Assembly (NCBI GenBank): GCA_032358255.1
Contig: JAULBX010027319.1
Location: 1-38,391, forward strand
Source: Heterotrichella gracilis
Taxonomy: Eukaryota; Sar; Xanthophyceae; Tribonematales; Xanthonemataceae
Length of the DNA stretch: 38,391 nt
Direction of reading: 5' to 3'
Shown in pieces: positions 1-38,391 of the stretch. The notes below the pieces were generated by a model that worked only from the letters and a program-made list of their open reading frames with translations, was not told the origin of the DNA and made no database searches. Every line of letters begins with the position of its first letter. Position 1 is the stretch's first letter. The position numbers were made by a program, and so were the translations under genes.

Positions 1-512
1 CGATTTCCCACTGCTTTTCCCCTGCCTTGAGTGCTGCCCACTGAGCTCTGAGGCCCGGTGGGCAGTATGACTGAGCTCTCCCCTATGGTCCAACTCAAGC
101 TCCACCCACTCACAGGCATTCGAGTGCTTCGGTACACAACCTTGCTGTTTCTACGTTAACCTCAAGAGGTGGAAGCAGGAACAGCCAGGTCCAAATTTTC
201 TCCCGCACGAGCCCAAGTTCACGGTGTTCACTTTGGTGTTCAACCTTTGCTCGAACCGGTGCTGGCATGTCCTGGGCATGCGCCACTCTGGCCCCTCTGA
301 GCTGCAGCATCTGACGCTTGACAAGAACCACTAGAAAGCCAACCAATATTCTGTAACCTTTCATCGGCTCCACCGATATCTTTCACTGTTTGGCAGCCAC
401 GACGCGTGTCCTTTTGGTCACTTCTGCTCGCATATGCATGCATGCATCCTAAAAACCTGTCCTACACTCCCTTTCCAAGCTTCCACAAAGTTGATATACA
501 GTACCGTGAATA
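1..512. other. Left-edge intergenic region, 5' flank of the ADP-ribosylglycohydrolase gene
   Basis: No reading frame here resembles a known protein or shows plausible splice structure. A short GCAT repeat lies near 433-447. The start codon of the next gene follows at 513, so the right part is probably its promoter and 5' UTR. No clear TATA box is visible. Confidence 0.5.
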
Positions 513-3312
513 ATGGAGCTTGGAGAAACACCGTCGGTTGTTTCCGGCAGCTCCTTTGACGCAGCGTTTGGTGCGGTGCTGGGTGCCTTCGTGGGTGATG
601 CCGCAGGTGCCCTAGTGGAGTTCAGCTCCTCAGTGTCCGAGCAACAGGTATGGTGGCCGCGATCAACCCTAAACCCTATACAACCTGCAGGCTTATGGGA
701 GAGTAGTGTACACATATGTCAGCTTGCGTGTGCAAGGAGGGCTCCAGCTGGCAGCGCAGGGTGTTTCACTGTACCCCTTCCAGGCCTATGGATACCTTTC
801 AGATTACCAAAGTAGGTTACTAGGTATCTGACACCCCTTCACACCCTTCATTTATTTCTTTTTTGTAGGCGGCTGAGGCGCTGACTCTGCCTGGAGGTGG
901 GCCGTTCCATCTGGGGCCAGGGCAGGTGGGGTTTAGGGTTTAGGGTTTAAATGTAACTGGGCCACCAATGCTGCTTCCACTGCGCACACTTCAACTTTTC
1001 AGAACAAAAGTTTCTGGATCCATGCAAGTCGTCACCACCATAGTGCCTGGTTAAGATTTTCAGGTTTCTGGTTTTTGACCCTGGTCAAAACCCTGTTTCA
1101 TTGGTGTGATCCCCCAGGTGACAACCAACAGTGAATGGCCCTTCAAGGGTTTTCGAACAACCACCCAACACCACCCTTTTTAGGGTTTCTGACCCAGCTT
1201 ACCACCCTGTCGACAGGTGACAGACGACAGTGAACTGGCCCTGTGCCTCATGCATGGCCTGGCCACCAGCCCCCCACGCGCCTTCCCCACGATGGCGGTG
1301 GCGCGCCAGTACGCGGCGTGGTGGGACAGCGACCCGTTTGATATTGGTAGGTTCCCTCCCAGTGATAGATGAGCACCTCCAACCTGCGCCTACTGACTGT
1401 GAACGTCAGTGGGCTCCAAAACGTGCGCAAGCTTCCGCACAGTGTTTGCTTGTATCTTGCAGGGCAGGCGGGACATTGTTTTGTTCAGGAACAAATGATT
1501 CATGTGCCCCTTTGGTGTCCATGTTTGCTGGGGGTCTGATCTTGCGGTCAAATTGCTCATGATAGTACCCTAAATTGGGGTCTGGCCTGTGCCCCCGCAG
1601 GCATCACCTGCACTCGTGCCTGCCGCCTGGCGCGCATGCTGGTGCAAGGGGATGGCGGGGTGCCTGACCTCCCCTCGCTTCTGACCCAGGTGGAAAAGGT
1701 GGGTGTGCATGGATGGTGGAGCGCATGAACCAAGGTGGTCCATGACATGGCCATGGTGCAGGGAAGGGAGAGTGCATGCGATGAAGGTCTACCACTCGAG
1801 ATCTTTTGTCGGACAGTGAATGGGGCACTTTGCACACTGGGCCACCATCGATTCCCCCCACACAGAAACGATACGCAATAAACATGGAAAGCAACGAATA
1901 ATGTCAATCATAGTACACGTTGCCCCAAACCCTTCCCTGTCCAGCGCCATCATGCGCGTTGCCCTCCCAGCACCTCTAACTTCCCCTTGCAAAGCCCCAT
2001 ATCCCCTTAAGAGGGCACAGTGCACGCCCTCATGCTCCCTTTAAATGCCCCGCATTTCCCCTCCCTCAGGCCAATTCCAGCTCCAAGGCCAACGGGGCCC
2101 TCATGCGCGCCACCCCCCTGGCAGTGTGGGGCCACGCACTGGCAGTGGATGAGCTAGCTGAAGCTGCCCGCATGGATGCTCGCCTGTCGCACCCCAACCA
2201 GACATGCCAGGTGGGTAGGGTGGGCGGGGGAGTCCGCTGTAGGGTTTGCTGCGGGAGGGCTGGGGGTTGTGTTCATTTTAGATACTTCATCACGCGGTAG
2301 GGATGCACCGGGGAGTGACCAGTATTTCAGGTCCTACCTGGAACGCCCCATACTGAGGACGAAGATCGTGTACCTTGGCTGTTTGATTTTATTGATTATT
2401 GTTGAGGATTTTACCCTTTTTCAAGGCCTTGTACCCTCCCAACCCCCAACAGTAACATAAACACCTACATCATAACCGCCACGTTGCCGTGGCGCAATGG
2501 TAGCCTCCTTTTGGGCACCCACCCCACACTTTATCACCCCTCCTCCACCACCCAGGATGCCAATGCCGCCTACTGCGTTGCCCTGGCCCACTTAATACGC
2601 TCCCCTGGCGACTCCCAAGGGGCCATGCACGCCGCAGTCACATGGGCCCGCCAGCAGGCAGTGGAGGAGGTCTGCCAGTGGCTGGACGAGGCGCAGGGGC
2701 CCGGGGATGGGCCTGGGTGCGGCGAGATGATTGGATTTGCGCGCTGGGGGTTTGTGCACGCCTTCAGGTGGGTGTGGGGATGGGGCACATTAAATGTACA
2801 TGACGTCAAACTATGCAAAATTGGGATCCCTAACGACTGGTTACTGGAAATGTGTAATAAATACATCAATAATATTAAATATGGATATCATGGTCTGTTT
2901 CACTCTACGCCCACGGGGGGTGGGCGCTTTGTGATTGGGCCGGGCCTCGTACATGAAAGTGGTCATTATTCACTCAGCAGTCTGCATGTCCTAATTTCCT
3001 AATCATTTCAAGGGGATTTCACCCTCCCGCAGGCACCTCCACCTGCGCACCCCCTTCACCACCGGGCTGCGCCACATCATCCAGCAGGGGGGGGACACAG
3101 ACACCAACGCAGCAATAGTGGGGGGCATGCTGGGGGCGTTGCACGGGGCGGGGGCCATCCCCCCACACATGCGCGAGGCAGTGGTGGGGAGTGGGGGCAG
3201 CAAGGGGTACAGGGAGAGACCTGCGTGGCTGCAGCCTACGGGGTTGGAGGGGCGGTGTAGGGGCCTGTTTGATATGGCCCTGGCAGGGAAGAGGGAGGGG
3301 GGCAGAAGTTAG
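513..3312 (+). CDS. ADP-ribosylglycohydrolase (ARH/DraG family), 7 exons, 350 aa
   Basis: The family removes ADP-ribose from proteins or small molecules using two Mg2+ ions. Exons: 513-647, 869-925, 1217-1346, 1601-1698, 2070-2210, 2556-2767, 3033-3312. All introns are GT-AG, and phases join to one frame ending in TAG. Family motifs appear in order: GAFVGDAAGALVEF near residues 24-37; VTDDSELALC near 65-74, whose Thr-Asp-Asp are metal ligands; NGALMRATPLAVWG near 148-161; and GGDTDTNAAIVGGMLGA near 277-293, whose Asp-x-Asp supplies the second ligand group. The length is usual for a single-domain ARH, and all visible metal-binding residues are intact, so the enzyme should be active. No signal or transit peptide is obvious, suggesting cytosol or nucleus. 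Which substrate (ADP-ribosyl-Arg, -Ser or O-acetyl-ADP-ribose) cannot be told from sequence alone. Confidence 0.93.
931..948 (+). repeat. Interstitial TTTAGGG units in intron 2
   Basis: Two and a half TTTAGGG units sit a few bases after the 5' splice site of intron 2. This is the plant and green-algal telomere unit. Confidence 0.8.
1116..1142 (+). repeat. Echo of the start of exon 3, in intron 2
   Basis: This 27-bp stretch matches 1215-1242, the acceptor AG plus the start of exon 3, with three substitutions and one gap. The copy lies about 100 bp upstream in the same orientation and retains its own AG. The duplicated part covers the codons for the metal-binding Thr-Asp-Asp motif. Confidence 0.6.
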
Positions 3313-3423
3313 AAAGTGGGAATTTAAGCTGGCATAGCCATGGGTTGATCGCCCATGCTCTGTTGTTCTTATGCGAGCCTTGGAGCCTTGATTTTTTCCA
3401 GCGCCGTTGAGCAGTCACTCTGG

Positions 3424-3428
3424 TGTAA
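3424..3428 (+). promoter_or_regulatory. Poly(A) signal TGTAA
   Basis: TGTAA occurs 112 nt after the stop codon of the ADP-ribosylglycohydrolase gene. This pentamer is the standard poly(A) signal of chlorophycean nuclear genes. Confidence 0.65.
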
Positions 3429-4272
3429 ACAGAGGAACCTTTTGTTGGCCAACTAGTTGTGGCTCTGAAGTGCACTGGTTACTGGAGCCCACTGCGTTTG
3501 CGTTCTGCGTTTGCCAGGGTCCATCCCAGTGATCGCACTGTCAGTGACTAGTTTGACACAGCTGTGTCCCAACACTGTTGGCAACTAGACACTTGCCACT
3601 GAATAACAGTTTGGGTTGGCAATGCTCTGCAACCAGTCACTGACTCAGTTGGGTTTTGGTTAGGTTTTATGGTGGGTCCCGGATCCAAGATTGCACTACA
3701 GGGTTTGAATTCAGGCAGTTTGCAGGTTTTTTTACAACTGTGTTACACTCACAGGTGGAGCCTTCATGGCCCCGGTGGAAGATTGCATCCCTTCAGTTAG
3801 CAGAGCAAAGTAACTTCATACCTGTCATACCTGTTATGACACCACTGCCTCCCAGGTCCCACCGCAGCGCCTGCCTTAATTTTAAACTAGTCAGCTAGTG
3901 AGTGATATACCCCACTGATAAATTTACTACGTAGTTAGTATTATCAACAAGCTGTCCCCTTGCTGTACCCATGAGGAACGCTGAGTTAGCTGTGAAACTC
4001 CTGGCCCTCAACAGCAACCCTGCACCACGCTGACAGAGCCGGGTGTCGGTGTAACAGCACCACACATTTAAATGTGTGGCCAGCAACCTACAGTCAAAGA
4101 ACAGAAACCGACAAACAAACTTTGCAATGACGCCAGTAGCACCTTGCACAGCCAGCCCCAGAAACCAGTGACAGCATTGAAAACGATGGACTGGCTAACG
4201 GCATGGACTGGCAACAACAACTATAAGAACGCGCATGGCTAGGAAACCTGCCTTGTAAGGGGTAGTGATAAC
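3429..4272. other. Intergenic region between convergent genes
   Basis: No supportable gene. The frames at 3656-3898 (+) and 3895-4300 (-) lack recognisable protein character. The region holds the 3' flanks of two genes that face each other. Confidence 0.5.
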
Positions 4273-4294
4273 TTACAATGAACCCTAATTTACA
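4273..4294 (-). promoter_or_regulatory. Two poly(A) signals (TGTAA) of the antiporter gene
   Basis: On the minus strand TGTAA occurs at 4290-4294 and 4273-4277, about 50-70 nt past the antiporter stop codon. Confidence 0.6.
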
Positions 4295-4344
4295 ACACAC
4301 GAATCAGAAGTGAATCCCCCAAGAAACGCCCAGCACCCCCCCCC

Positions 4345-7300
4345 TCATTGAGGTCCCTGCACCTTCCCGCCATCCCCGCTGCTCCTGCCCACCCCCCCTT
4401 CCTCTAACAGCCGCGCCTGCTCCACATCCGCACCCCCCAAACCCCCCTCCTCAACCCCGTCTTCCACCTCCACCTCCTCCCCCACTCCACTCAAACCACC
4501 CACTGCCGGTGGCAGCGGGGATGCGGGTGGTGTCCCCGCATGTGTTCCCCTTCCAAAGTGCGCATCCAGTTCCTCCACAGCCCCCACCGCTGACACCTCC
4601 ACAGCGGATGCGGAAGAAACCGCTTGGCGCAGGCGGCTGAAAGGGCCGGGGCGGGCGCGCTGCGAGGGGGTTTGACCCTCCAGGCTGCGCCGGGTCCCTG
4701 TGCGACGGGGAAACCCTAGGTCAGGGTTTTGGACAGAAAAGGGGGATAACGGGGATGGGAGGGCGATGGGCATGCATGCAAATGACATGTGATTGCTGGC
4801 AGGGCAGTGGTGGATGCCGAGGCATTTCTTGTAATTGTAACGGTGGATGGGACTATCAATGTGGTTTCTGATTGCGAATGTGATTCTCTTCTTGTGGTTG
4901 GTTGCGGATGTGGTTCAATGGTGTTACCTCGGCTGGCGGACGACACAATTGGCCCCTTCACCGCATTCTGATTGGCGCGCATCGGGCGCAGCGACGCCAC
5001 ATGCACGCTCTTCTCCCCCTCCCCTTGACCGCTGCTGCTCTCTCCCCCTGACTGGTCCGCACCCCGCAGGGGGGTTCCACCTGGGCTGCCGCGCGGCGAA
5101 GGGCCAGGCGAAACAGCCTCAGAGGCCACGCTGTGGACGGTGCCGTTCCCCAAGGTAAGCGGCGGGACTGACGTCAGGCGGGAGAGATCTAGGGTAAATG
5201 CGGAACCCTCTGGGGGAGAAGGGGGTTGCTCGGGGAGGTCTCGCAGGACCTGCAGGGGGAGGTGGGATATAATCTGCTACAGGGGAGGTACCAGAGGGTT
5301 CTACGTGGTGCGCCCCATACCCTAGGGTACGCGCAAGGGTAATTCCAAGCGTCCACCTCTATACATGCCATCACCATCACTGTACAGGCAACATGCCCAC
5401 ATCATCAATATTGCATAATCAATTCTTGAGGCAATAATATTGGCCCAAATGCCACGCCCCTTACCCTTATGCTGGTGAAATTGGTGTAGGGCCTTCCCCC
5501 CTGCTCCACCGGCGGCAGCAGCGTGACCGCCTCAAAGGTGGTGTAGTTTTCCCTCCCCTCGTCACACGTGTACACGCTCCCCTCCATCAGCAGCGCCGCC
5601 TCCCCTGGGGGAAGGCTGTCGCCCTGGGCCAGGCCCTGGAACCGGGCGGACCTGCGGGGTGGGTAGGGAGGTGAGTGGGGGAGATCAGTGGGTGGAGGTA
5701 GGGATCAGTGGATGAGAAGTGGAAAGAGAGCCTGGAACCCACCAGGCCTGCGAGTATGGGTTGGGGCCGGTGGGGCGCCGGTGGTGAATCTCCGAGGGGT
5801 ACAGTTTACCAACATGCGCCAAACCTCTGCAATGCTACAGCTTCGCACCGCTGATCCCTCCTCATAATCACCCAGGAGTTCCTGCTCTTCACCAAACCCT
5901 ACCAAAAACCCTAACCCACCTCAAGGGCCTTGGTATTCCAGCTGGGAACATAGCAGTTGGGTTTGACCCTTGATCCGCCGCTGCACCTCCTGCAGCTGCA
6001 CGTTCCCCCATGTCCTGGACCTCTAAACCCTGTATTAGGGTTCCCATTTCACCATCAAAGCCCTAGCCAAGGGTTGTCCACCCGCTCACTCACCTGAACC
6101 TGCTCTGCAGCTCCTGTAGCTGCACATTCCCCCACGCCCCCCCCAGGAACGTCTGCGCCAGCAGCGCCCCTGTGCACGTCCACAGGCACATGCGCAGGCC
6201 CTGGTGGGTGAGCGCAAGCTCCTGGAGAGGAGGAGGAAGAGGGGTTGGTGGTGGTGATGATGATGTTCATCTTTGTAGTTGGTTGCAATCATCAACAGAC
6301 GTATAAATTCAATGATTACCACAGTAATTATGATAACAGCCCCAATGATGGGACCACCACACCACTGACCAAGCGTTCCCCACACAGTCCCCACCCTTCC
6401 CCGGCATGTCCAATCCCCTCTCCAACAAGAGGCCCCCCAAGGCCTCTCCCTTCCCCCACACACCCCCCACCTTGATATACTCCACATCCATCCGGTACGC
6501 CTCACAAATGGTCACCGCGGAATACTCCAATTTGGACCCCTTGGGCAGCGCCAGGTGGGTGTGCAGCACGGATTTAGGCCCCGCGAATGATGTCCCTCCT
6601 CCACTGCCCTCCTTGACCTTAGCCACGCCACGTGTCATGATGTAGATGAAGCGATCGGTCACGTGGGGGAACAGCTGGCCGGGGCCCAGCCATACGGGGG
6701 TGGCGGCATCCAGGACCTGGGGAGTGGAGAAATTGGGGCAAATTTGAGGGGGGTAGGGATGGCGGGACAGCTGGCGCAGATGGTAGGAGGATGGATTCGG
6801 GGCGTATGTCACATGGGGAGAATACCTGGTCGTGCCCCAAACGGGGGGGGGATAACTTTTTATGCACCAACATCAACTGGATGAACATACACAGTTTGTA
6901 TCCAAAAAAGTATCACTGTTGTAATTGGCATTTTCCCATTTGAATAAACACTTGCCTTTTTCATCTCCTCCTCCGGCAGCTCATCAAACAGCACGCACTG
7001 CTGCACCAGGGGGGAGAAGTCGTCCACGGGCGCAGAGGGGGGGTCCTGGAGCAGCTGCTTCAGGCGCACCTCAACCATGTCGTCCACACCCACCATCTCA
7101 TCCTCCTCCATCAACCCTACGCAAGGGTGCAGGTTAGAGCATCGCAGGGCATGGATTTCCGTGGCGCAAATGCATACCGTATCGCTCACAGGGTGACTTT
7201 GCACTGCGCACAAAAGTGTATGAGTTTGCAGCTCTCATGTCGTCCACACCTACAATCTCGCCTGTCATCAACCCTCCGCAAGGGTGCAGGCTTTCGGGTC

Positions 7301-10300
7301 GTAACCAATGGTCATGAAAGGCAGATCAGGTCACGTACAAGAAAGGTACCTGACCAAACACCATCCGTTTCCAGACCTTCCAACCAACCCATGCCACCCC
7401 GTACTCCAGCACACCACCCCCACCCTTCCCTGTGCACCCCCCGCCCCCCGCCCCCACCTGACTTGCCCAGCCCCTGGATGTACCCCTTCTCAAACAGCAG
7501 CAGCTCCTGCGCAACCTGCTTGGTGCGTATGGAGGTGAGCACCTCGGGGAAGCCAGCACCCACACGGCGCAGGAAGGCCTCGCTGAGATCGGACTGGGCG
7601 GCGCCCTCCACAATCACCTGCGGACATGGTGTGGTGAGCGGGCTGCGGGTGTGGTTGGTACTCTTTTGTCGCCACTGTTATTCCTGGCGAACGGGGCCAT
7701 ACTGCTGTAAACTGGTACCATACTGACAAGCCTATATACCACAAACATATTGCCTTAGTGGGCCAGTCCAAGGCTTGGGGTTGAAGGATTGGGTGCCACC
7801 CATGACTCCCCCACCAAAACCCTACCCCAGGGTTTACGCACACCTGGGCCCCCCACTCCAATCCCTTACAAAAACGCCCATCCCACCAGCGTACCTGATC
7901 AATCACGTTCTGCCTCATCTGCTCAAACAGCGCATCCATGTCCGAGCTGAAGTACATGCCACCGCCAGCATACTCCACCTCCTGGTCCCAGTACTCGCTG
8001 CGCACGTTGTAGCTCTTAAGCAGCGCCCCAGTGGAGTGGTGGGCGGAGGAGAAGGCGGCGGCGGTGGCGGCCAACTCCTGTGGTGGGGTGGGGTGGGGGG
8101 GGTTAGGGTTAGGGTTTAGGGTTTAGGGTTTTGACCGGCTGTGGCGGTAACTTCTGAGGAAGGGTAGTGGATGTGTGGGGGTGGGGTAGTGGATGTGCGG
8201 GGGTTGGAGGACATGGAGAGGGGTGGTGGTGCTCTGCGGGGTGGGTGGGGCTTCTTGCATTTATGCTGTATGTGTGTTTTGTGGAGGGTTTGAGGTCTGA
8301 TTGGGCTTCAGAGGAAAGAAAAAGCAAGCAAGGGGTAGTGTGCGCACTGAATGCCGTCTTGGACAGTGTTGCATCACGTTCCACATTGCATCACTTCACA
8401 GAGGGTTTACATAAGGGTTACCATGAGGGTTCAGTTTGAGGGGATTGCATGGTGATAAGGGTCCCATCAAGAAGATTTGCAGCTCACCTGCAGGATGGTG
8501 AACAGCCAGTGCCTGACCAGGCGCCCAATGCCACGGGTGTGCTTGAACCTGCAAGGTGTGGGTGGGAAGAGGGGTCAGGATACGGCTTTCACCAGCCGCT
8601 AGGCATCGATTTTGCATGCCTGGTCAAGAGAGCTCCAATGAGTTCTCTACACAGTACTCTGGCCCGGTAATAAACAAAATGCCTCTACAGTCCCCTCCCA
8701 TTTGCACCCAGTCCCATGCATTTTGCAATGATATGTATTATAGACATCATGCCACACCCCCATCTCCGCACCCACATTTGTATTATAGACATCATGCCAC
8801 ACCCCCATCACGCATGCACGCAGCACATTCACTGTTGCTTTTGCATACATCGGGTAATCAATCAATTCCAACACCCCCACACACGCCCTGCCCCACCCCA
8901 CCTCAGCAGCACGTTTATATAGCTGGGCAGGCTGGTATTGATCCATTTCCAGTCGCTCAGCGGGGTAGTCAGATGATCCAGGTCGGAATCCACCGCGTTG
9001 TACAGCTGGTAGATCTGATTGGAGCTGATCTGGTTGCGTCGGAACGCGTCCTCATATGATGCCCGCACCCCCCGCAAATAGCGCGCGCGCATGTCCGCCA
9101 GGAGGTGGGTGCGGTTGAGCTTGAGTGCCAGGTGGCGGAGGTAGCGATCTGGGAAGGGGAGAGGGAGGTACTTTAACGAGGGCAATAATGTCTATCTCAG
9201 CTATTTCAGTTATTATTATTGGTATTGACAATGATTACTACTATGAGGGATGCGCAGGGAGGCATCCTCGCATGCCTGTCACACACCCAAGGGTTATATG
9301 CATCCAGGTCAAGGGTTCCACTGGGGTGTGTTGCAGTACCTATGTTGTGCTGGCTCTCCATGGCCGTGGGTGCGCTGCTGCGCCTGCTAGCATACCGCTC
9401 CATGAACGACTCGCTCTCAAGGGCCACCAGGTCAGACACCTGGGCCAGAGCAAGGAGAGGGGAGTAACCAGGACAGAAAAGGGCGTGATACACAGTGACC
9501 TTTAAATTTTACTATATTTACTAAGCAGTAGGTGCCATTAGGTGAGCAGGACTCTGCAGGCATAGAAAGGGGGAAGAATGGGGTGGAATCAGGAACGTTA
9601 CAACACATTTTTGATAATTACTTCTCCCCAGCACACAGGGCGTGCAAACACTACACACAAAAGCTGCACATTACAGCAGCGGGTACCTTAGCAAGGTCTA
9701 CCTCTGCCTAGGGTTCTTGACCTACCCACCTGATTCCAGTTTGGGCTACCCAGCAGCGGGTCCTGCGCCAGAGTGCGCGCCTTGTCGTCGGTGTGCTGCA
9801 GCACGTCCTTGAGTGCGTTGTTCAAGTACACGCGCTTCACTGCAGCGGGGCGGGTCATGCCCAGCTTCTGCAGGGGGAGTAACAGTGGGGTGTGGGTTAG
9901 GGTTTTGGTTGGGTTTGAGTGCGCCCTTGAGGAACTTGCGCGGGGCAAGACATGCCACATAACTGCTACAGGATTTTAGGACTACTGTAGGGTTCACCAG
10001 CCTCGCACAAAGCAAATGATGCATGCCGTTCCATCATAGCAGCAGCGGTTCAGGCACTATGATTTCTGCTAGGGTTTTTGCTAGAATATCTACTAGGGTT
10101 TTTGCTAGAGTTCTGCTAGGGTTTCTTCGCAGAAACTTTCTTGTGCGCCGCACCTCCAGCAGCAGCGTGGTGGTGGAGCCCTGGATGAGGATGGTCAGCA
10201 GCGCCTGGCACCCTATCTGGAAGAACGCCAAAACCCTAAAGTTAGGGTCTGGGATCTGGTTGTCCAGCAGGATGAACAGCCCCAGAGACAGCCCCACAGC

Positions 10301-13300
10301 GCCCCTCAGCCCTGCCCAGGTCATGACGATGGCGGTCTTCAGGTCGATGCCGTAGCCGGTGACCTTGAGTATGGGGTAGAAGATGGCAAACATGGCGGCA
10401 CGGATAAGCTGCAGAAAGGGGTAGGGTTTTCAGTAGGGTTTTTGGCAGTTGTGTTGCCTCCAGCTGATGCTGTTTTTGCGCCTTGACGCCACTTGCTCCA
10501 GAATGTCCAAGTCACACAATTTTGACCAAAATGGATTGCACAATCATTGGGCAAGCCTTCATATCTCGCACGGTATTTGTGCCCTTCCTGGGAGTACAAC
10601 CAAAATCAGCCCCCACCTGTAGGAACACCCACAGCACAGGGGCATGAGCCTAGTCCCTGCTCCAAATGTGGCCAGGTGTCATTGTCTCTCAAGGCACAAT
10701 TTGGGCCCCTAACAGTACAGCAGACTACCCAAAGGCAGGCATTTACAACAGGTGCAGATTTGGGTCCCAGCTCCCCCAGGGAAAACCCTCCACATCAGCC
10801 CCCACCTGAAGGAACACCCACAGCAGCAGCGCGTATGCGTAGTCGCTGCCCGAGATGTGGTTGATGCCGTTGTCGCGCTCGCTCTCAAAGATCTTGGCCA
10901 CGATGAGCGTGCCGGCAAGCACAAAGATCATGGTGTTGCCAAGGAACTCAAGCTCCTCCCTGGGGGTAGTAGGTAGGGGGGAGTGGGGATTAGTGAAATT
11001 GGGGATGGGGATGGGCACATCTGATGTGGTGTTGCCAAGGAACTCAAGCTCCTCCCTGGATAGAAGGGGGGAGAGGCCTGCTTGTTGAAAAAGGGGGTAG
11101 CTTTGTGGACCAATGTGGGGGTGCCTTCAAAGGGCCTCCAGCCCCCCCGTGTGCATGTGGGGTTTGATTGTACACGTGATGATGCGCATGTGGCCGCGGT
11201 CAAGTCAAGGACATGTGCAGGCGCTTAGGAAAACGGCAGGATCATGGCAAAATTTAGCATGCATCGGGTCCTCCCGCCGCCACCACCGCCACCACCATCC
11301 ATCCACCCACACTCACCACACCACGTGCATGGAGTGCTCCACGCTCCTGCTGATGTGGTGCTGCCCCACCGCAGCCATCAGCATGCCCAGGGTCACCACC
11401 GCCAGCACGCCAGACACCTTGAGCAGCTCGTTGCCCACTATGAACGCACCAAAAGCTGCCGCGATTGTCATGGTGATCTCCATCATGGGGTCCTGGTACA
11501 CGTAGCGCAGCCAGAACAGCATGAGCAGGCCGACTGCGGGAGAGTTGGGGGTGGGGGCAGGGGGTTAGTAAGGGGAGAGGAGATGGGGCGGAAGGAGAGA
11601 AAGGGGTTGTCAACAGCCATCAAATTGGTGTTAGATCATGCACTCTCATCCAGCAAGTGTTTCCCTGTCATGCATACGAATCCAACGGATTTTGGAATAT
11701 CATGCACAGACCGCATGGTGTCAACCCCCCACTGCAAGACTTGTCCACCCACCTGCAAAGCCAAACGCAGGCCCTCCCAGCGACAGCCTGCACAGCAGCC
11801 CGATGATGTGGCCAGCGCTCTCGTTGTACCCGTGATTGTACTCCTACGCACAGCAATCAAGTCTTGTCATCATCACCTGGCGATCGGCCGTGGGCGAGGT
11901 GCATATGGTGGCAAGCATCACGGATGGTCTCATCCCATGGGTGGTGTTACAGGAGGGCGGTGCATTCTTAGGAGTTGAGGGCGTTGCTCACCCACCCTCC
12001 AGCCATTTACCATGACAAGAAGGGGGTTGCAATTTATACTGGGACAGCGGCATCCATGTCTAAATAGTCATGGTCCATAACGGCCAAGGTTTTGAAGAAC
12101 AGCAATTGCCACCAGGATTATTACATGTTTCCGAGAACTGCGGTTTGGCCGGAGCGGGAACTAAGGGGCAAAATTGTACAGCATGCAACCCTAGGAAAGG
12201 GTTTTCCCCGCACCTGGAACAGCAGGAATAGCACGTAGGCTGTGCCATCGTTCACCAGCGCCTCCCCTTCAACCACGATACGCAGCTTGGTGTCAGCACC
12301 AACCTGGAACACAACAAAGAGAATTTGTGGTTGGGACATCAGGTTTTACGATATTAGGGTTTAGGGTATTGCGCAGCTTGGTGTCGACGCCAACCCAAAG
12401 TGGGTGGGTGGGTGAGAGAGTGGGTGGGGGGTGGGTGGGAAATGCATCTACTGCTGATGCTGATTATGATGGTGATGACCCTACCAATGGTGTTGGTGAT
12501 GGTGATGGTGACCAACCCCACCATCCTACCAAGCCACCCTACCCACCCACCCACCTCCTTGAGCAGCGCCAGGCGCCACCACTGCAACTGGGTCCGTGGC
12601 CAACAGCAGTCTCGACTACAACCCTACCCAAACCCTCACTCCCACCCCCTTCACCACCGCCGCCACAACTGGGTCAATGGCGCCACCACCACCACCCACC
12701 ACTCACCCCCACCACCACCACCCACCTCCTTGAGCAGCGCCACCACCGCCACCGGGTCAGTGGCCGACAGCACCGACCCCACCAGCAGGCACTGGCTCCA
12801 ATTCCAGTCGTAGGGGAACACGTACTTGAACACCAGCGCGGTGAGGGTGGCGCCAATGAGCACACCGGGGCCGGCCAGCAGCAGCACCTGAAACGGGGGT
12901 TAGGGTTTTGGGGTTTAGGGTTTAAGGACAGTACACTGGGCCCGTAAGGAGCCCACCTGAAAGGGGGTAAAAGGGCGGGGAGGAGGGGGTGATAATTGAT
13001 TGGACCAGAGTGGAGAAGGTGCTAATGCTTGGCCGCTTGCTGAAATTTCTGATGGGCAAAAGAAGTGCTGGTGACCTTTAAACCCTACACCCTACAATCC
13101 CTCAGCGACATGCAGTCTTCACAGCGCGTGCCACCCCAGGACAGTTCACTGCTGAACCCCTAAAACCCTACGCCTGCCGGCCGCCGTACCTGGGTCATGC
13201 ACTTGCGCAGCGTGTGCCACTCCAGGGAGAAAGCGCTACTGAAAAGCAGAACGGGGAGGAAGAGCGACAGCAGGAAATTGGGGTCGATGGTCTGCAGGAG

Positions 13301-14981: not shown

Positions 14982-17744
14982 ATGTCTCGAAGGTATGACT
15001 CCAGGACGACCATCTTCAGTCCTGAGGGGCGGTTGTACCAGGTGGAATATGCGATGGAGGCCATTTCCAACGCCGGAGCAGCTATAGGCATCCTGGCGAA
15101 AGATGGCGTGGTCCTGGCAGCTGAAAAGAAAATCACTTCCAAGGTGGGGACCCATATGCATGCATACATCTTCCCAGCACCCAACTGTTGTCTTGCATAA
15201 TCCGGAGGCTGCTTGGTGTTTATCAACGTCACATCTGTCCAAACTCGCAGCTATTGGATACCACAGCTGTCGGTGTGCGGAGAGAAAAGATGTACAAGCT
15301 TGATGACCATGTAGCATGCGCAGTGGCAGGCATCACAGGTAACACCCCTCCCCAAGCAGTGCACGTGGTACTTTCTCAAGTGAGCATCCTCAATCGACGT
15401 GCTGAACCAACGCACAATGGCATTTTGCCCCTCTGGAAGGTAGCAGCTTGTCCCAGTGAAATATCAGATGTTAACCAAGCGTGAGATGTTTACACAGCCT
15501 TTTCACACTGGATGGTTTTTCCTGCAGCTGACGCCAACATCCTGATCAACACCTGCCGGTTGGCTGCCCAGCGATACCTGTTCACCTACCAAGAGCCTAT
15601 GCCTGTGGAGCAGCTGGTGCGCGCACTGTGCGACAACAAGCAGGTAAGCAACAGGGAAACAGGACGTGCTGACAGCAACACGTGCACTTCCAGCAGGTGT
15701 CCATATGCACACTGACCCCGTTGGTCTGTACATTGCGTCGAGGGTTGATGGCAATGCCCCAAGTGGCCACTAAGCAGTGACAGCATGGAAGTTGATCCAT
15801 GCATTGGTGATGCGGCCTGCCATACAGCTGCTCCAAACCTCACTTCTGGGTCTTTGGCCTGGCGTTTGTGTCCCAATTTCCATTTGTGGTGCAACTGCAC
15901 CTGCCCTGTTGGTGCCTGGCCTGGCATATTGTCCATCTAACCCCAATGCTGCCGTCCCACAGGGCTACACGCAGTTTGGGGGGTTGAGACCGTTTGGCGT
16001 GTCCCTGCTGTATGCCGGATGGTACGTTTCATGGCCCCACCTATTCATTACATACACACTTCTTGCCCACGCACCTGTCACCTGCTCGCCCCTTGGAACC
16101 CTAACAAATGGTCGATGGCAGTGACCCTTTAGGGTTTTGGGTCATGGGTGAGGGTGTAGGGATTGTCAAGCCTTTGTCTGTCGTGATTTGTATTAATTGA
16201 TTTCCTTATATTCCTCTAGCCATATACCCCCAAACCCCAACTCCATCCCAAGTTCCGCCACTTTGAGACTAAGCACTCGGCTAAATCAGGAGTTAATTAC
16301 TTACAAGCACTTCAGCAATACAGCCAATTCAGCATTTGGCCTCGCGCATGTGGCGCCTAGCAGTTTGGTCCTGGCACTGTTGTGGTCGCTTTGCAAACTC
16401 AGTTGTCTGCACTCGCTTTCCCGCTTGAGATCCTTGTGCTTTGATACCCTGGTTGCTCCCACCTAGGGACGAAGTGGAGGGGTTCCAGCTGTACCAGAGC
16501 GACCCCAGCGGCAACTACGCGGGGTGGAAGGCAACAGCCATCGGCGGGAACCACCAGGCGGCGCAAAACATACTCAAGCAGGTGCGGACCAACTCAGCAT
16601 GTGATTAAATCACATGGGATGTAGTCACATGTAATCCTGCTGTGTAGCCAGGGTGGCAATCAGCCATGCACATGCGGCGCCAAGCAGTTTGGCCATGGCA
16701 CTGATAATTTATTCTGCATGATTACATATCGTTCTTGATCTTGCACGATTTGAGGTCCTGCTGGGTCACCGGAAGTGGCGTGCTGGCAAAAGTGGCCAAT
16801 CCGTAAATCCACCTTAGTTGTACTCTTGGAAACCGAAGGTGTGCATGGGGCATTCACAACTGCATGGCCACATGCCGCCTGCCGTCAGCACCCCCCTCAG
16901 CTCTGTTGTGAGGACACAAGGAGGTTCAGGCTGCAGTCGTGTAGCTGATAGGAACCCTGGTCATTGTCCCGGTTCTGATCTTTTATATACCTATTCCCAC
17001 ACACACCCTCACACATCGCGCCACATCACCCCAACGCAAGTATAGCAATGGCCGCTCCCGCATTACAACCCTCGAGCCTAAATCCACACCCTCCCTGCCT
17101 GGCCCCAGGACTACAAGGAGGACCTGAGCCTTGCGGATGCTGTGAAGCTTGTGATCAAGGTGGTGAGCAAGACCATGGACAGCACCAGCCTCACGCCCGA
17201 CAAGGTGGAGCTGGCAACAATCTCAAGGAACGAGGAGACGGGGAAGGTGCGTGGTGTAGGGTTTAGGGTCAGGGTTAGGGTTCGGGGCTAAGGTGGATAA
17301 GGGAACAGAAATGAAGAGACGGGGGATTTGTGCGTGGGGTGGGGCAGGGGTGCTGCCAGCATTGCGACTGAGACTGTCTCTGGCAGGGCCTGGTAACTCG
17401 TGTCACATGCACACTTTCCCGCTGGCCCCTTTCCCAGTGTCCTGCAACTTGACGCTTCATTTGTAACACACTTGATCTGATAATATGAGATTGGGAATAT
17501 CGAAATAGATATCTCATTCCCCTATGTCATCATGTCCTGTTCAAGCTTGAGCGCTGCTAAATCAGTAAAAAAATTAGTGGAATCAAATACAATACAAAAC
17601 ATTATCTTGATGAAAGAAAGTAACCCCCTGCCCCCCCCCCGCACCCAGGTCCTGTTCAAGCTGTACGAGGATGACGAGCTCAAGCCGCTGCTAGACACAG
17701 TGAACCAGGAGGTGCAGAAGGAGAAAGAGGAGGAGAACATGTGA
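14982..17744 (+). CDS. PAC1: 20S proteasome subunit alpha type-4 (PSMA4/PAC1), 7 exons, 257 aa
   Basis: One of seven alpha subunits forming the gate rings of the 20S proteasome; alpha subunits have no protease site. Exons: 14982-15143, 15251-15338, 15528-15643, 15963-16021, 16467-16581, 17109-17246, 17649-17744, all GT-AG and in phase. The N-terminus [20 protein letters not shown] followed by VEYAMEAI is the alpha-subunit signature and is diagnostic for the alpha-4 type. [43 protein letters not shown] and [12 protein letters not shown] follow in family order. The C-terminus is a charged Lys/Glu tail, as in PSMA4 orthologues. Human PSMA4 is 261 aa, so this is full length. The start is fixed by family conservation. 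Expected in cytosol and nucleus. It shares its upstream region with the antiporter gene. Confidence 0.97.
16347..16703 (+). repeat. 33-bp direct repeat in the two introns flanking PSMA4 exon 5
   Basis: 16347-16379 and 16671-16703 match at 29 of 33 bases and share AGCAGTTTGG and TGGCACTG. Exon 5 lies between them. Neither copy resembles coding sequence of this gene. Confidence 0.75.
17254..17285 (+). repeat. Interstitial telomere-like units at the start of PSMA4 intron 6
   Basis: TAGGGTTTAGGG, then TTAGGG and TTCGGG, begins eight bases after the exon 6 donor. Confidence 0.75.
17530..17572 (+). repeat. Echo of the start of PSMA4 exon 7, in intron 6
   Basis: GTCCTGTTCAAGCT is repeated exactly from 17649-17662. 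After a missing block of about 15 bp the match continues with GAGC, GCTGCTA and a run resembling GACACAGTGA. The copy is about 115 bp upstream in the same orientation. The acceptor AG is changed to TG. Confidence 0.6.
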
Positions 17745-28112: not shown

Positions 28113-28114
28113 TT

Positions 28115-31027: not shown

Positions 31028-31162
31028 ACTGTTGAACTAGTTCATTAAATTTTAATGAAAATAGAGGATAGGTAAGTTGCATATCCTTGGAGTATTTGTT
31101 GCAGCAAAGAATATGCAGCTTACCTATCCACTGTTTTCATCTAAATGAACTAGTTCAACAGT
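31028..31162. mobile_element. MITE-like inverted-repeat element
   Basis: The ends ACTGTTGAACTAGTTCATT (31028-31046) and its exact inverse (to 31162) begin arms of 57 and 52 bp around a 26-bp loop. The inner parts of the arms also pair (GGATAGGTAAG-TGCATAT). The loop holds TTTGTTGCAGCAAAG, itself palindromic and also present at 30473-30487. The element is 135 bp and AT-rich against its surroundings. No clear target-site duplication is visible and it has no coding capacity, so it would be non-autonomous. Confidence 0.65.
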
Positions 31163-31426
31163 GCCATCCGTGGGTGTGGTGGATCTGCTGGAGCCTGAGC
31201 GTAACACCAGAAACAACAGCCCTGGCAGCAGGTCAACATGTCTGATACTGCTTCCAGTGAAAGTGCGTACCTGGTGGCCGCATTGCGCCTGCAGATGTAC
31301 TCCCGTGATCAGCCTACTTTGCCGACAAGCTGACAGGGGTTTAAAAGTTTGGTGATTGGCCAGCAGTCATGCATCAGATGAACATGTGGCAGCCGTGACA
31401 AAGGCGCTGCATTTGCCAGGTAGCGC

Positions 31427-32879: not shown

Positions 32880-33048
32880 ACAACACAGGCTAGCCAAAAT
32901 CCCAAACCTAGCAGTCACACAGGATATCCATAGCCATCATGGAATGCCACCCCGCTGCAGTGCATGACTGACAACATCATGATCATGGCATGCACCACCA
33001 GTCACCCAACCACCCCTTGCTCCAGCAGCGGCCACCGCTGCACCCCCC

Positions 33049-36000
33049 TCACCGCCCCTTCACCCCTTGCTTCTTCCTCCCCTTGCCCCCTGGCTTGGAC
33101 CCCAGCCCTGACGCAACCTGCTTGCTGCGCGCGATGATGCGCATGGGCACCCCATCAAAGCCAAACCGCTCCCGCAGCCCGTTGGCGATCATCTTGCGCA
33201 GGTTCTCGGGGAACTCCTTCTGTCCCTTGCAGAACACGGCAAACGTGGGGGGGCGTGCCTTGACCTGCGTGATGTAGCGCACCCGGCTGATCTCGGCGGC
33301 GGTGCCAGAGCCCTGGTACTGGGTGTGGATCTGCATTTGGGGGAAAGGGGGGCCAAACCCTGGTGAGCGCCAGAACCGGGGGAAACTGTCGATAAAGATA
33401 CATCGGCCTTGACTAGAATGCACTAGAGAATTATGGAATCTGGAGTCCATGATCCTGTAGGATCATTGCTGTGGGTGTCTGCTAGCCCTGCGCCTCAACC
33501 TATGACACAAACCCAGCTGCATTCACCCACACCCATGTCACCCATCACCAGGGACCCCACCAACCCCCACATCCATCCCCACCCTACCCACCTGCTCCAG
33601 CCACTTGTTGATCTTTGCAGTGGGCACCCGCCTGTTCCACCGCCGGTAGGCACCCAGCACCGACGGCATCAAGTCCCGCGCCCCAGCCCCCGTTTCCGCC
33701 GACATCGGCACCACCACCAGCCCCGCCACATCCGCCATGCGGCGCTCCAAATGCTGGCGCAGGCGGGCGATGGCCAGTGGCTGCTCCTGGATGGGGATGA
33801 GGTCCATTTTGTTGGCTGCGATGACCAGCATGCGGCCCTCCGTGGAGACCCGCGAGGCCAGGGTAAGCTCGGCACGCGACACCTGCCAGGAGGCAGGGGA
33901 GGCGGGTCAGAAATACCCTAGTATAAAACCCTAGTATAATACCCTAGCAAAAACCCTGCAAAGACGGCGAGGAAGGGAGCGAGCTGGTCAGCAGGCGACA
34001 GCTGGCGGAGTGGCGCGGGTAGGTATGGGTAGCAAGGTTAAAGCTTTGAAAAACTTGACGGTACCCCCTGTGCAAGACCTGGCATGCAGGGGTGCAGGTT
34101 CAACCCATGCTCACCACGTCCAATTCCACCAGATACCCGTCCAATCCCCCCACGCATCTACCCCCTGCACCTTCACCATCATAGCCCCACCCCTCCCCAC
34201 CACCCACCTGCCCCGCTGCCAGCACCCCCGGCGCATCCATGACCATCACCACCACGTGAGCGAAAGCCACGCTGCGCCCCACCTCCTCCACTGCCTGCTG
34301 TGCCAGCGCCCCCCCCACATCGTCATATCTATCCAGGCGCAGCTTGCGGATCCAGCCGGCTGTGTCGTGCAGGATGACGTGGGTGGAGTCGTAGGTGAAG
34401 GGGATGCTGGGAGTGAAGGGGATTTTTTATAATTAATAAAATGACATTATTTGGGGGTTCTGGGTGTGGGGGGGTGATGTGTATTCCATGTGGGTTTGGT
34501 AGATTGTGGTGGGCGTCTACAGGTCTCAGAATGTAGGGGTGTGGATCCAGCCGGCTGTGTCGTGCAGGATGACGTGCGTGGAGTCAAAGGTGAAGGGGAT
34601 GCTGGGGTGGGGTGCGGTAGAATTGGGGTGAGTGGGGAGTCATGGTGGCACGATGCCTGTCAACAACGTTTACTCAAGCTGCGCATGAGCGGCTGCCGCC
34701 CTGCCTGTCATGCTGGGACACAGTACAGGCAACACAGTTTTGATTTAATTGTCATATAGTTTTTAATGCAGGGCTTGGCATTGGGTCTCCCTCACTACCA
34801 TCCATGGGCACCCTGCGACCCACCTGATGGCATCCCTGGTCAGGCCAGGCTCGGGACCCGTCAGCACTCGCTCCTGGTCCAGCAGGCGGTTCACAAGCGT
34901 GGACTTGCCCTGCACAAGGGTTTAGGGTTGAGCTTTTAGGGTTTAGGGTTTAGGGTTCACAAATGTGGACTTGGCATGCGCAAGGGTATCTGTGTGTTGG
35001 TAGGGCATCACAGCCAAACAGGTTGTGTGGGTGCGGGAGCAATCAGTTGGGTAGACATGCACAGGAAATGCAGCAGGCTGTGGGTTTTGGATTGGGGTCA
35101 ACATTAAGCACACGCTGCAAATTGACGTTTCATAGCAGTTGCAAGCGGCTGTGTGCAGACATTTATGAGCCCACAAACCTCCTCAGATTAACGTACCACA
35201 TTCGGCAGGCCCACAATGGACATGCGCAGCGGCCCCTCAGGCTGCCCAACCTCCACCGCCCCCTCCCCTCCTGCCTCCCTGCCCTCCACCCCCTGCGCAA
35301 CCATCCCCCCACCCCCTGGCTGGCCATTTGACAAGGCTGATTCGCCTGGCCCTTCATCTTGTGATGCTTGGGCCGAGGCAGATTCCCCAACTGCTTGATC
35401 ATGTGACTCATACAAAGAGGTTGTTTCGCCTGCTTCTTGATCAGGCAAATCATGTAACACAGCCGTAGTTTCTGCATGTGAGACAGGAGGTTCCGCATGT
35501 GCGGCACGGGGCTCGAATGCCTGCCGCCGCGCCGCAGCCGCCGCATCCACATGCGGTTGGAGTGCAGAGTATAGGTCGGCCATGCCCTCCCCGCTTGTGG
35601 CTGAAATGGGCACTGCCTCCCCTAGGCCTAGCCGGGTGGCCTCAGCCAGCGCCTCGCTCACCCCTGCAATGGTTTGGATAGGGTTTTGCATCTAGCCAGG
35701 GCCGCGCTCAACCCGGCAAGCGTGTAGGGGGTTGGTGAGGGTTTGGATGGTGTATTGGTCAAGCACCAGGGTGCTGGTTGAGTGCGAGCAAGGGGTTGCC
35801 ACGGGGATTTTAGCCCTTTTAGAATGGTATGACTTCCAGGCAAGCACCGCCGAAATGGCCAACAGGTACATACCCTGTTAGGGTAATTTGATGCGGTGCA
35901 TGCTGCATATTGCCCCTTCAAATTTTTGTGTCGTACCTGTGGCATATGGCCCCCGGCTCTCACATTTGTTGGCCACCAACACCAGGGAGGGGGGCGAAAT

Positions 36001-37127: not shown

Positions 37128-37956
37128 AATGGAACCAAGGGCATAGCAACCCTATCTAGTGCATGTTACCAACGTCTAGTAGTGAAAGACAGCAACTATG
37201 GAGCCATAGTTGTGGAGGAACCAGCGTGTAGTGTTCAGCTGCGTTGTGTGCTTTGGGGAGAGTTGATAAGCAGATTGCCAAGCCTTGCACCCAAGTTGGT
37301 GACCCAATGCCCTTGTAGAGGGAGAAGGGGTGCTGGACGCATATTATGGGACTCAAAACGGGGACGACAGGCATTGTGTCCATCACGCACCGTCTCAGTG
37401 TGTGTGTTAGGGAATTACCACCGTGAGCCTGATCATACTTCCAGGACCAAGGCAATAAGGTCCTTTGCAATCCCATTTTGAGACGCTCCACAAGTTGGTC
37501 AATACTGGCCCACACATGTGTCGTTGACCTGATACACCCCACACACAACAAGCCCATCAAGGTTACAAACTTTAAACCCTGAGGCATGGATAGTAACCAA
37601 GATGGATCAGACAGAACATGCCTTGGTAAATTACTGGGGGGCACGCAGGGTTGACTGGCGCCGCACCAGACCTTGTAAACAGATTCGTTTGACAACAACG
37701 TGCGTGCGCACACCAAGCAGAGCTGCATTGGGGAAATGCTTACTCCATTCTACACTCACAAAAGTCATCCGCTGAAGAGAGTTGCCTGTCAAAACTTTTC
37801 CTGAAGGTAATGGTACTGTCAAGCACCCAAGGGGTAGATACTACCAACACATATTGACCAAGGTCCATTGCTGCACATGCGCACCAGGCAGGCAGCAGAA
37901 CCAAAGGCTGACAGCATTTGCACCATCTTTCCAGGTGTTAACCCTAGTGTAGGGTT
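37128..37956. other. Spacer between Der and EttA-like genes
   Basis: About 830 bp with no supportable gene. It must hold the 3' UTR of the ABC-F gene (TGTAA at 37563-37567 on the minus strand, about 390 nt after its stop) and the promoter and 5' UTR of Der. The 190-codon frame at 37156-37728 (-) shows no known motif. Confidence 0.5.
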
Positions 37957-38104
37957 CTACACCGTTGCCAGGCGCCTGAACTTTACCCTAGTAGGGTCCG
38001 CCACCCCAGTGCGCCGCCTCCTGTCCGCCTCGTATTCGCTGTACCCCCCCTCGAACCACACCACCTGGGAGTCGCCCTCAAATGCCAAAATGTGGGTGGC
38101 CAGC
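37957..38104 (-). CDS. Last exon of an EttA-type ABC-F ATPase (partial gene)
   Basis: The exon reads [20 protein letters not shown] followed by [13 protein letters not shown], a basic tail and TAG. This matches the C-terminus of EttA-type ABC-F proteins, which follows the second Walker B and switch-histidine motifs. These ATPases bind the ribosomal E site and throttle translation by energy state; a plant or algal copy of bacterial type is expected in an organelle. The acceptor (CCTGTGCAG) and phase are good. Upstream exons, including HDRWFLD, are not in the window, so the gene continues past the right edge. Neighbouring Der is also a bacterial-type translation factor. Confidence 0.85.
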
Positions 38105-38391
38105 CTGCACAGGGCACAAACACATTTGAAATTTTACGGCGATCATTGACTACTTCATTGAGGGTGACACACATTACATCACCAGCCATAAATTACAGCA
38201 GCCGAGGCTTTGCATCGCACCCGCCCACATGTTGAATCAACTTTTTCAACCATAACACCTTTTTGTCTAGCACCCCACCCCCCATTCCAATCCTCCTACA
38301 GCCAACCTCATTGCACCCCCTGCTCCTTCCCACCCTCAGAACACACCCACTACGCAGCGTCTCCACAAAACATCCCCTCCTTCTCTCCCTC
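38105..38391 (-). other. Intron of the EttA-like gene reaching the right edge
   Basis: The sequence upstream of the last exon carries no match to the expected preceding ABC-F motifs. It is therefore read as intron, with the rest of the gene outside the window. Confidence 0.6.

What the first reader, a model, noticed from the sequence alone, without database searches (positions are those of the whole stretch)
1..38391. Introns repeatedly contain short direct copies of the edge of the neighbouring exon ('exon-edge echoes')
At least 17 cases were seen in four unrelated genes: ADP-ribosylglycohydrolase exon 3; antiporter exons 3, 4, 5, 8 (both ends), 10, 16, 17, 18, 19, 20; PSMA4 exon 7; Der exons 5, 6, 7, 8. 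Copies are 24-66 bp, in direct orientation, typically 50-200 bp from the original, and usually span the splice site. Identities run from 100% to about 70%, as expected of repeated events of different age. About three quarters sit upstream of a 3' splice site. Chance cannot give 33/33, 24/24 and 61/64 matches next to their own source. I know of no described process that gives this pattern. Possible explanations are template switching or microhomology-mediated repair during replication that lengthens introns, reverse-splicing intermediates, or selection for decoy splice sites.
Basis: seen in the sequence. Interest (0 to 1): 0.85.

Follow-up and report, generated by a model that had tools for sequence, protein, structure and literature searches.

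The report
Intron repair scars with telomere repeats
In this green alga about a quarter of the sampled introns carry a short copy of the neighbouring exon's edge, and the DNA between original and copy is unusually rich in telomere repeats, which suggests that broken genes were patched with chromosome-end sequence and the damage was then spliced away.

Summary
With my own gene models, 60 of 226 introns from 24 sources (window plus 23 stretches) hold a direct copy of a flanking exon edge. In the first 184 introns there were 52 hits where foreign introns predict about 1.3; reverse-complement controls gave 1. Copies decay neutrally (codon-position mismatches 115:120:256), and two tested genes have no second full copy in the 68.5-Mb genome. 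The new finding is what lies between the copies: the seven most enriched hexamers are the seven rotations of the telomere unit CCCTAAA. Conversely 37 of 68 intronic telomeric tracts are flanked by direct repeats, against 120 of 689 random intron points and 0 of 75 inverted. Best explanation: staggered breaks in genes, filled in (giving direct duplications), often with telomeric filler; hits on exon edges survive because the duplicated splice site lets the scar be spliced out. Against it: telomerase polarity was not seen, and 81 of 142 duplications show no telomeric word.

The parts
34824..34909 (-). Der-like GTPase exon whose 5' edge is echoed
   Evidence: gene models; Der/EngA C-terminal domain in the last two exons of the same gene
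34888..34921 (-). copy 1 (exon edge) of the clearest scar
   Evidence: direct pair, 34 bp, 85%, d 66
34917..34957 (.). telomeric stretch AGGGTTTAGGGTTGAGCTTTTAGGGTTTAGGGTTTAGGGTT between the copies (overlaps a few bases of each)
   Evidence: tract scan
34954..34987 (-). copy 2 (echo in intron)
34345..34411 (-). Der exon edge, source of the longest ungapped echo in the window
   Evidence: 67 bp, 94%, d 195; 61/64 core
34540..34606 (-). echo of 34345-34411; one telomeric word between
10931..10963 (-). antiporter exon 8, 5' edge; 33/33 source
11027..11059 (-). echo of 10931-10963; no telomeric word between
10806..10874 (-). antiporter exon 8, 3' edge; source
   Evidence: id 0.73
10617..10686 (-). 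echo of antiporter exon 8 3' edge
12214..12303 (-). antiporter exon 5
12354..12367 (.). telomeric tract TTAGGGTTTAGGGT between exon 5 edge and its echo
12372..12394 (-). echo of antiporter exon 5 5' edge (12281-12303)
12555..12608 (-). echo of antiporter exon 4 3' edge (12726-12772)
12859..12967 (-). antiporter exon 4 5' edge: copy, 31-bp telomeric insert, copy (38 bp, 75%)
   Evidence: tract 12900-12924
13109..13156 (-). echo of antiporter exon 3 3' edge (13196-13243)
7236..7273 (-). echo of antiporter exon 16 5' edge (7076-7116)
6808..6850 (-). echo of antiporter exon 17 5' edge (6658-6703)
5971..6015 (-). echo of antiporter exon 18 3' edge (6095-6139), telomeric words between
1118..1142 (+). 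echo of ADP-ribosylglycohydrolase exon 3 5' edge (1217-1242); telomeric tract 1179-1188 between
17534..17547 (+). echo of PSMA4 exon 7 5' edge (17649-17662)
   Evidence: 14/14, among the two lowest scores
35694..35713 (-). echo of Der exon 5' edge (35644-35663), telomeric words between
   Evidence: p 0.01
8059..8186 (-). antiporter exon 14 5' edge: copy, 27-bp insert of telomeric repeats, copy; C-rich and weak (71%)
   Evidence: tract 8109-8131; not among the 13

Best explanation
The echoes are scars of DNA breaks in genes. A staggered double-strand break (two offset nicks) leaves single-stranded ends of roughly 20-120 bases; fill-in of both ends duplicates that segment X in direct orientation, and end joining traps filler between the copies, giving X-filler-X. 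In this alga the filler is often telomere repeat (TTTAGGG/CCCTAAA), so I infer that ends are handled like telomeres (telomerase, or capture of telomeric DNA, with CST/Pol alpha-type fill-in). Events inside an intron are neutral. Events that hit an exon survive mainly when X includes the splice site: the exon body keeps one complete X with a working splice site, and filler plus second X become intron. Shown here: direct duplication, no full second copy for two genes, neutral decay, telomeric enrichment between copies, concentration in genes. Inferred: staggered break, fill-in, end joining, telomere-type handling, survival by splicing.
For: (1) Direct: 227 direct against 19 inverted pairs; flanks of telomeric tracts directly repeated in 37 of 68 intronic cases, inverted in 0 of 75. 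(2) Telomeric words between copies: among hexamers seen at least 20 times the top seven are the seven rotations of the telomere unit; 61 of 142 gene clusters 60-399 bp apart against 29.0 expected, and in 41 of the 61 no such word in flanks of the same total length outside the copies. (3) Reciprocal test: 37/68 against 120/689, p 1e-10; one tract per intron 29/55 against 83/513, without the three richest loci 17/38 against 47/368. (4) Compact structures at 35 tracts: copies 18-122 bp, median 65, inserts 13-59 bp (60 was the cap), 21 of 35 touch an exon. (5) Neutral decay. (6) The unit stands at the first bases of contigs; 19 other 7-mers of the same composition give at most 27 tracts each against 144. 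(7) Same anatomy in print: telomeric insertion at a staggered break with flanking duplication (PMC7215372, passages); CST/Pol alpha fill-in of 3' overhangs yields tandem duplications (PMC8355091, passages).
Against: Telomerase polarity was not seen: the predicted side of the tract was the nearer one in 20 cases and the farther in 28 (tracts of 9 bp or more; 14 against 19 for 11 bp or more). 81 of 142 clusters have no telomeric hexamer between copies, and in the identity bin 0.88-0.94 there is no clear excess (12 of 36, 9.8 expected). The 33/33 case has no telomeric word between copies and the 61/64 case one. For 3'-splice-site echoes the density excess is weak (4.53 against 2.72 per kb, 7% of controls as high). 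27 of 76 echoes copy exon interior without the splice site, which a plain X-filler-X event does not give; 7 of 24 such cases tested show further homology as in longer tandem duplications. The excess of copy ends at the splice junction is not predicted. No relative with an empty site was available.
Confidence: 0.6

Rival explanations
1. Telomere-like tracts came first and are fragile: they stall replication or form G-quadruplexes, and the nearby DNA is then duplicated by slippage or template switching. The tract is cause, not filler.
For: Association alone does not fix the order; in 20 of 61 clusters telomeric words also lie outside the copies; the L022 array near 401-818 has telomeric tracts between successive units. 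ITS fragility is reviewed in PMC6410037 (passages).
Against: If the tract were part of the duplicated unit it should appear on both sides; in 41 of 61 it is only between the copies.
Confidence: 0.18
2. Ordinary short local duplication by replication slippage or template switching, with no causal role of telomeric sequence; exon copies are noticed more because the source exon is conserved.
For: Pairs 20-59 bp apart are equally dense in introns and intergenic DNA (15 in 111 kb, 10 in 61 kb); 81 of 142 clusters lack telomeric words; among pairs at least 92% identical the exon excess is modest (16 of 29 against 9.9 +- 2.5, maximum of 200 trials 17).
Against: Clusters 60-399 bp apart are rare outside genes (3 in 61 kb against 27 intron-intron in 111 kb); exon source in 63 of 93 against 32.8 +- 4.1 on random repositioning; telomeric hexamers rank first.
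Confidence: 0.14
3. Splicing- or RNA-linked copying (reverse splicing, reverse-transcribed pre-mRNA) that pastes exon edges next to cryptic splice sites.
For: Copy ends 1-6 bp past the splice junction in 20 of 76, and in 9 of 18 at 90% identity or more (simulation 6-11% overall, 7-16% at 90% or more; microhomology model 4-5%); 15 of 21 junction-bounded echoes show no homology beyond the junction, yet AG or GT stands there in 16 of 21 by my count of the listing; direct orientation, concentration in genes.
Against: 0 of 7 in a later stretch (L033); intronic bases follow the copies, not the next exon, so spliced mRNA is not the template (by eye); 14 of 35 compact tract-flanking duplications do not touch an exon.
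Confidence: 0.06
4. Assembly artefact: two haplotypes or misjoined reads laid in tandem.
For: The assembly is fragmented (903 contigs) and appears to hold bacterial contigs.
Against: Mismatches fall equally on codon positions 1 and 2 (115:120:256), not as between alleles under selection; all degrees of decay are present; low-GC, bacterial-like contigs of the same assembly show 3 direct pairs in 30 kb; no second allele was found for two genes.
Confidence: 0.02

Closest known systems
Short interstitial telomeric sequences inserted at double-strand breaks (mammals; PMC2246262, PMC7215372, passages seen)
   Same: Telomeric repeats inserted at break sites; some loci show direct duplication of the target, attributed in the horse paper to staggered breaks (plain duplication at 3 of 66 horse loci; 6 of 130 rodent and 4 of 25 primate loci).
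   Different: There duplication is a minority outcome and human insertions fall in introns as expected for random insertion (31%); here 37 of 68 intronic tracts are flanked by direct repeats, and 73 of 80 tracts are in introns, 7 in intergenic DNA.
Small tandem duplications from fill-in of 3'-overhang breaks by CST-Pol alpha-primase (PMC8355091, passages seen); paired-nick duplications in plants (PNAS 2016, seen only in that paper's reference list; author name Schiml recalled)
   Same: Direct duplications at breaks made by offset nicks.
   Different: Experimental breaks in cultured mammalian cells; no telomeric insert in the passages seen.
Doublets / repair-mediated duplications in vertebrates (Thomas 2004, seen as cited; PMC2671141, passages seen)
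   Same: Short local copies, sometimes of exon plus splice site; no constraint found on the two copied exons discussed.
   Different: 824 donors in the human genome, 4 of them partial exon/intron; a copy there can be inverted. Here about a quarter of sampled introns, nearly all direct.
Internal direct repeats of new introns in Daphnia (PMC4202315, passages seen)
   Same: Repeated staggered breaks proposed to lengthen introns.
   Different: Repeats shared with the exon end are 4-12 bp there; here 14 to more than 100 bp; no telomeric filler in the passages seen.
[quoted passage not shown]
   Same: Duplicate crosses an intron-exon boundary and carries splice signals along.
   Different: There a new intron arises; here existing introns grow.
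Direct repeats near splice sites (Rogers and Bendich 2025, PMC11782384, abstract and outline only)
   Same: Direct repeats at intron borders above chance.
   Different: Repeats pair the two borders of an intron, mean 11.4 bp; here one exon edge is copied inside the adjoining intron.

Membership tests
Telomeric insertion at a staggered break (short ITS with target duplication) | telomeric repeat of the species itself between two copies of the target | tested here: met
   unit at the first bases of contigs; 37/68 intronic tracts flanked by direct repeats; met for a part of the duplications only (61 of 142)
Telomeric insertion at a staggered break (short ITS with target duplication) | tract absent from the orthologous empty site | not testable with these tools
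   no relative of this genome is held
Telomeric insertion at a staggered break (short ITS with target duplication) | polarity expected of telomerase (G-rich tract abuts the left copy, C-rich the right) | tested here: not met
   20 for, 28 against; capture of telomeric DNA or later erosion not excluded
Doublets / short local paired duplications | short copies, close together, same strand, more than chance | tested here: met
   227 direct, 19 inverted, 1 in shuffles
Introner elements | repeated element family inserted at many introns | tested here: inconclusive
   two genes searched against the genome gave no dispersed family (two short matches on one other contig); that search skips simple repeats, so the telomeric core is not covered
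Intron gain by tandem duplication | copy abuts the opposite splice site so that the copy itself is the new intron | tested here: not met
   2 of 29 downstream-exon echoes start at the 5' splice site, 0 of 23 upstream-exon echoes end at the 3' splice site
Functional duplicated (mutually exclusive) exon | copy under coding constraint | tested here: not met
   codon-position mismatches 115:120:256 over 94 echoes, similar in each class

The most novel reading that the evidence does not exclude
In this alga breaks in transcribed genes are routinely handled as if they were chromosome ends, so that telomere-type repair is a main engine of intron growth: each event adds a filler, often telomeric, and a duplicate of up to about 120 bp, and the duplicated splice site lets even breaks inside exon edges be spliced away without harm. 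Introns would act as the sink that makes this repair tolerable.
Probability: 0.35. Interest if true: 0.87.

Novelty: new variant of a known kind. Interest (0 to 1): 0.7.

Why it matters
Where intron sequence comes from and how introns lengthen is an old question. Here a specific, countable footprint (exon edge, telomere repeat, exon edge) marks many introns and ties their growth to break repair with telomeric filler. It predicts empty sites in relatives, dependence on telomerase or CST, and that breaks near exon edges are tolerated because the splice site is duplicated too. In the listings of the ten literature searches made here (capped lists, titles and starts of abstracts) I saw no paper on telomeric repeats together with exon-edge duplications in introns; the library holds open-licence papers only.

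Tried and rejected
Chance: rejected. Coding function of the copy, and allele or haplotype artefact: codon positions. Whole tandem duplication of the interval as the only process: many of the 28 pairs at 94% identity or more have unrelated sequence between the copies (by eye), and sequence between copies resembles the flank in 14 of 62 tested. Microhomology at splice words as cause of copy ends at the junction: only 4-5% predicted. Spliced mRNA as template: intronic bases follow the copies (by eye). Recursive splicing: no GT at the start of the stretch after the echo in the cases looked at (by eye). Cryptic acceptor before junction-bounded echoes: tract score above random intronic CAG sites (n = 10, p 1e-4), but the youngest of these were not convincing. 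Splice-junction peak: 0 of 7 in L033 (L032 has no predicted gene). Telomerase polarity: not supported. Held-out claim avoided: L032 and L033 were already in the set.

Rows dropped: L001, L007, L011 (GC 33-37%) from the algal counts; L018 (coding repeats of 126-bp period) from then on; introns outside 60-900 bp or beside weak or short predicted exons; one of 76 stretches between copies; 14 of 76 echoes with short flanks; 5 of 80 tracts near stretch ends; inserts over 60 bp; clusters with gaps under 8 bp or outside genes.
Full report
WHAT WAS DONE. The window is contig C481 (bases 1-38391) of an unnamed 68.5-Mb, 903-contig assembly with no relatives held. I fetched 25 stretches of 10 kb and later two more. 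Three stretches of low GC were set aside (L001, L007, L011; L001 carries dense long ORFs that by eye are response regulators and histidine kinases, so it reads as bacterial). I wrote a gene finder, started it from two hand-annotated window genes and retrained it. It returns its starting models of ADP-ribosylglycohydrolase (ADPRH) exactly and the first six PSMA4 exons; its later PSMA4 exons run past the gene. Window proteins match ADP_ribosyl_GH, Proteasome, Na_H_Exchanger (first 296 residues) and the Der/EngA C-terminal domain (last two exons); the best-scoring relatives of ADPRH are green-algal, at about 50% identity. Outside the window the gene models are ab initio and untested by RNA.

IS IT THERE? 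Yes. The best local score of the last or first 100 bp of an exon against its own intron reached 16 in 23 (upstream exon) and 29 (downstream exon) of 184 introns (60-900 bp, between two well-scoring exons); foreign intron stretches of the same length predict 0.5 and 0.7, and the reverse-complemented exon edge gave 0 and 1. The 52 hits lie in 47 introns; without the window 44 hits in 39 of 149 introns. On the final set (window plus 23 stretches) 60 of 226 introns carry an echo, unevenly among 44 genes (permutation p 0.002), and these introns are longer (median 357 against 261.5 bp).

WHAT KIND OF COPY. Pairs are mostly direct: 227 direct, 19 inverted, 1 in shuffles over 208 kb; the three low-GC contigs give 1, 0 and 2 direct pairs. 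Genome searches with two echo-rich genes found the locus itself, one tandem echo, one inverted self-match and two short partial matches on another contig. Clusters 20-59 bp apart are as dense between genes as in introns (10 in 61 kb, 15 in 111 kb). Clusters 60-399 bp apart belong to genes: 67 exon-intron, 27 intron-intron, 30 with exonic sequence in both copies, 4 in very long introns, 2 mixed, 3 intergenic. Of 93 with one copy wholly in an intron, 63 have an exonic partner; random repositioning gives 32.8 +- 4.1, maximum 44 of 200 trials. The excess is 1.6- to 1.9-fold in all identity bins, though for the youngest (92% or more) it lies within the range of the trials (16, maximum 17). So slower decay of exons does not explain it alone.

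AGE AND CONSTRAINT. Exon and echo differ at codon positions 1:2:3 as 115:120:256 (94 echoes). A neutral copy of a constrained exon predicts about 1:1:2; a functional coding copy or a second allele would be dominated by position 3. The ratio is similar for copies that end at the splice junction (24:32:52), cross it (44:30:78) or lie inside the exon (34:38:96), and there is no excess scatter between echoes (p 0.86). The copies are real, old and young, and decay freely.

ANATOMY. Of 28 pairs at least 94% identical, many have sharp ends and unrelated sequence between the copies (by eye). Of 76 exon-side echoes, 21 end 0-6 bp beyond the splice site, 28 cross it further, 27 lie inside the exon. For ends 1-6 bp beyond, 20 of 76 were seen; a simulation of random copy ends with neutral decay, made for downstream exons, predicts 6-11% (7-16% for copies at 90% identity or more) and a microhomology model 4-5%. 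The excess was strongest in the youngest copies (9 of 18), but 0 of 7 in a later stretch (L033), so I leave it open.

THE TELOMERIC LINK. Ranking hexamers (seen at least 20 times) by enrichment between the copies against introns without an echo puts CTAAAC, CCCTAA, AACCCT, AAACCC, GGTTTA, ACCCTA, CCTAAA first: the seven rotations of one unit, CCCTAAA, either strand. The same seven lead the list introns against intergenic. Exact runs of seven units occur in 11 contigs: on the forward strand at the first bases of five and at base 138 of a sixth, on the reverse strand in five whose lengths I did not look up; the backward control pattern gave none. I take this as the telomere unit. Between an upstream exon edge and its echo the density of ACCCTA/TAGGGT is 10.94 per kb against 3.74 +- 1.43 in matched stretches (no control of 500 as high); for downstream exon edges 4.53 against 2.72 (7% of controls as high). 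Of 142 gene clusters 60-399 bp apart, 61 have a telomeric hexamer between copies, 29.0 expected; by identity bin 13 of 29 (6.4), 24 of 54 (13.0), 12 of 36 (9.8), 12 of 23 (5.4); in 41 of the 61 none lies in flanks of the same total length outside the copies. Reciprocally, of 80 telomeric tracts of 11 bp or more, 73 are in introns, 7 intergenic, none exonic; the flanks of 37 of 68 testable intronic tracts are direct repeats (score 16 or more), against 120 of 689 random intron points of the same loci, and 0 of 75 flanks are inverted repeats. This survives one tract per intron (29/55 against 83/513), removal of the window (26/47 against 78/436) and of the three richest loci (17/38 against 47/368); window alone 3/8 against 6/79; L032 and L033 alone 6/8 against 17/66, though these were part of the set. 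Clean examples: L017 9432-9552 (54-bp copy, 13-bp insert CCCCTAAACCCTG, 54-bp copy with its 3' splice site) and window 34888-34987.

MECHANISM. X-filler-X with X in direct orientation is what fill-in of a staggered break gives. Horse telomeric insertions include loci explained in just this way (PMC7215372, passages), a table for rodents and primates lists duplication as a minority class (PMC2246262, passages), and CST-guided Pol alpha-primase, which also fills in telomere ends, makes small tandem duplications at 3'-overhang breaks (PMC8355091, passages). I therefore take staggered breaks in genes, often with telomeric filler, as the most likely origin, and survival by splicing as the reason why exon edges are involved: if X includes the splice site, the exon body keeps one complete X and the rest is intron. 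Steps inferred, not shown: the break, the fill-in, the origin of the filler. A polarity test for telomerase failed (20 against 28), so captured telomeric DNA is as possible. More than half of the clusters carry no telomeric word; whether they had other filler, lost it by decay, or arose otherwise is open. Why the scars are rare in intergenic DNA is unexplained; transcription-linked breaks would fit.

VERDICT. The process is most likely of a known kind (break-repair duplication), in a variant that I did not meet in the literature searched here: dense, concentrated in genes, linked to telomere repeats and centred on introns.

Noticed in passing
introns of the sampled stretches, e.g. window 929-949, 8109-8131, 17257-17269: Telomeric hexamers (ACCCTA/TAGGGT) are 3.06 per kb in introns against 0.62 intergenic and 0.43 in exons, crowded toward the 5' end of introns (87 of 373 in the first tenth).
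   Followed up: partly
L001 (C1), L007 (C100), L011 (C180): Low-GC contigs (33-37%) in the algal assembly; L001 carries dense bacterial-type ORFs and L007 dense long ORFs (by eye): the assembly seems to hold associated bacteria. L011 was judged by GC only.
   Followed up: partly
L018 3211-4478 and 7321-8194: Arrays with period about 126 bp in predicted coding sequence, i.e. probably a repeat protein of 42-residue units.
   Followed up: no
L023, L025, L032: Stretches with few or no predicted genes; L023 and L025 had no local direct repeats, L032 had five.
   Followed up: no
window about 31030-31163: Imperfect inverted repeat with arms of about 40-50 bp, seen by eye in the sequence, perhaps a small foldback element.
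   Followed up: no
window 18974-21124: A further predicted gene on the minus strand, 4 exons; leucine-rich-repeat-like from reading, not scanned.
   Followed up: no
L022 401-818, L017 7805-8129, L014 3657-4127: Multi-copy arrays of exon-edge or intron units with spacings near 91, 114-122 and 193 bp, as if the same site was hit repeatedly.
   Followed up: partly
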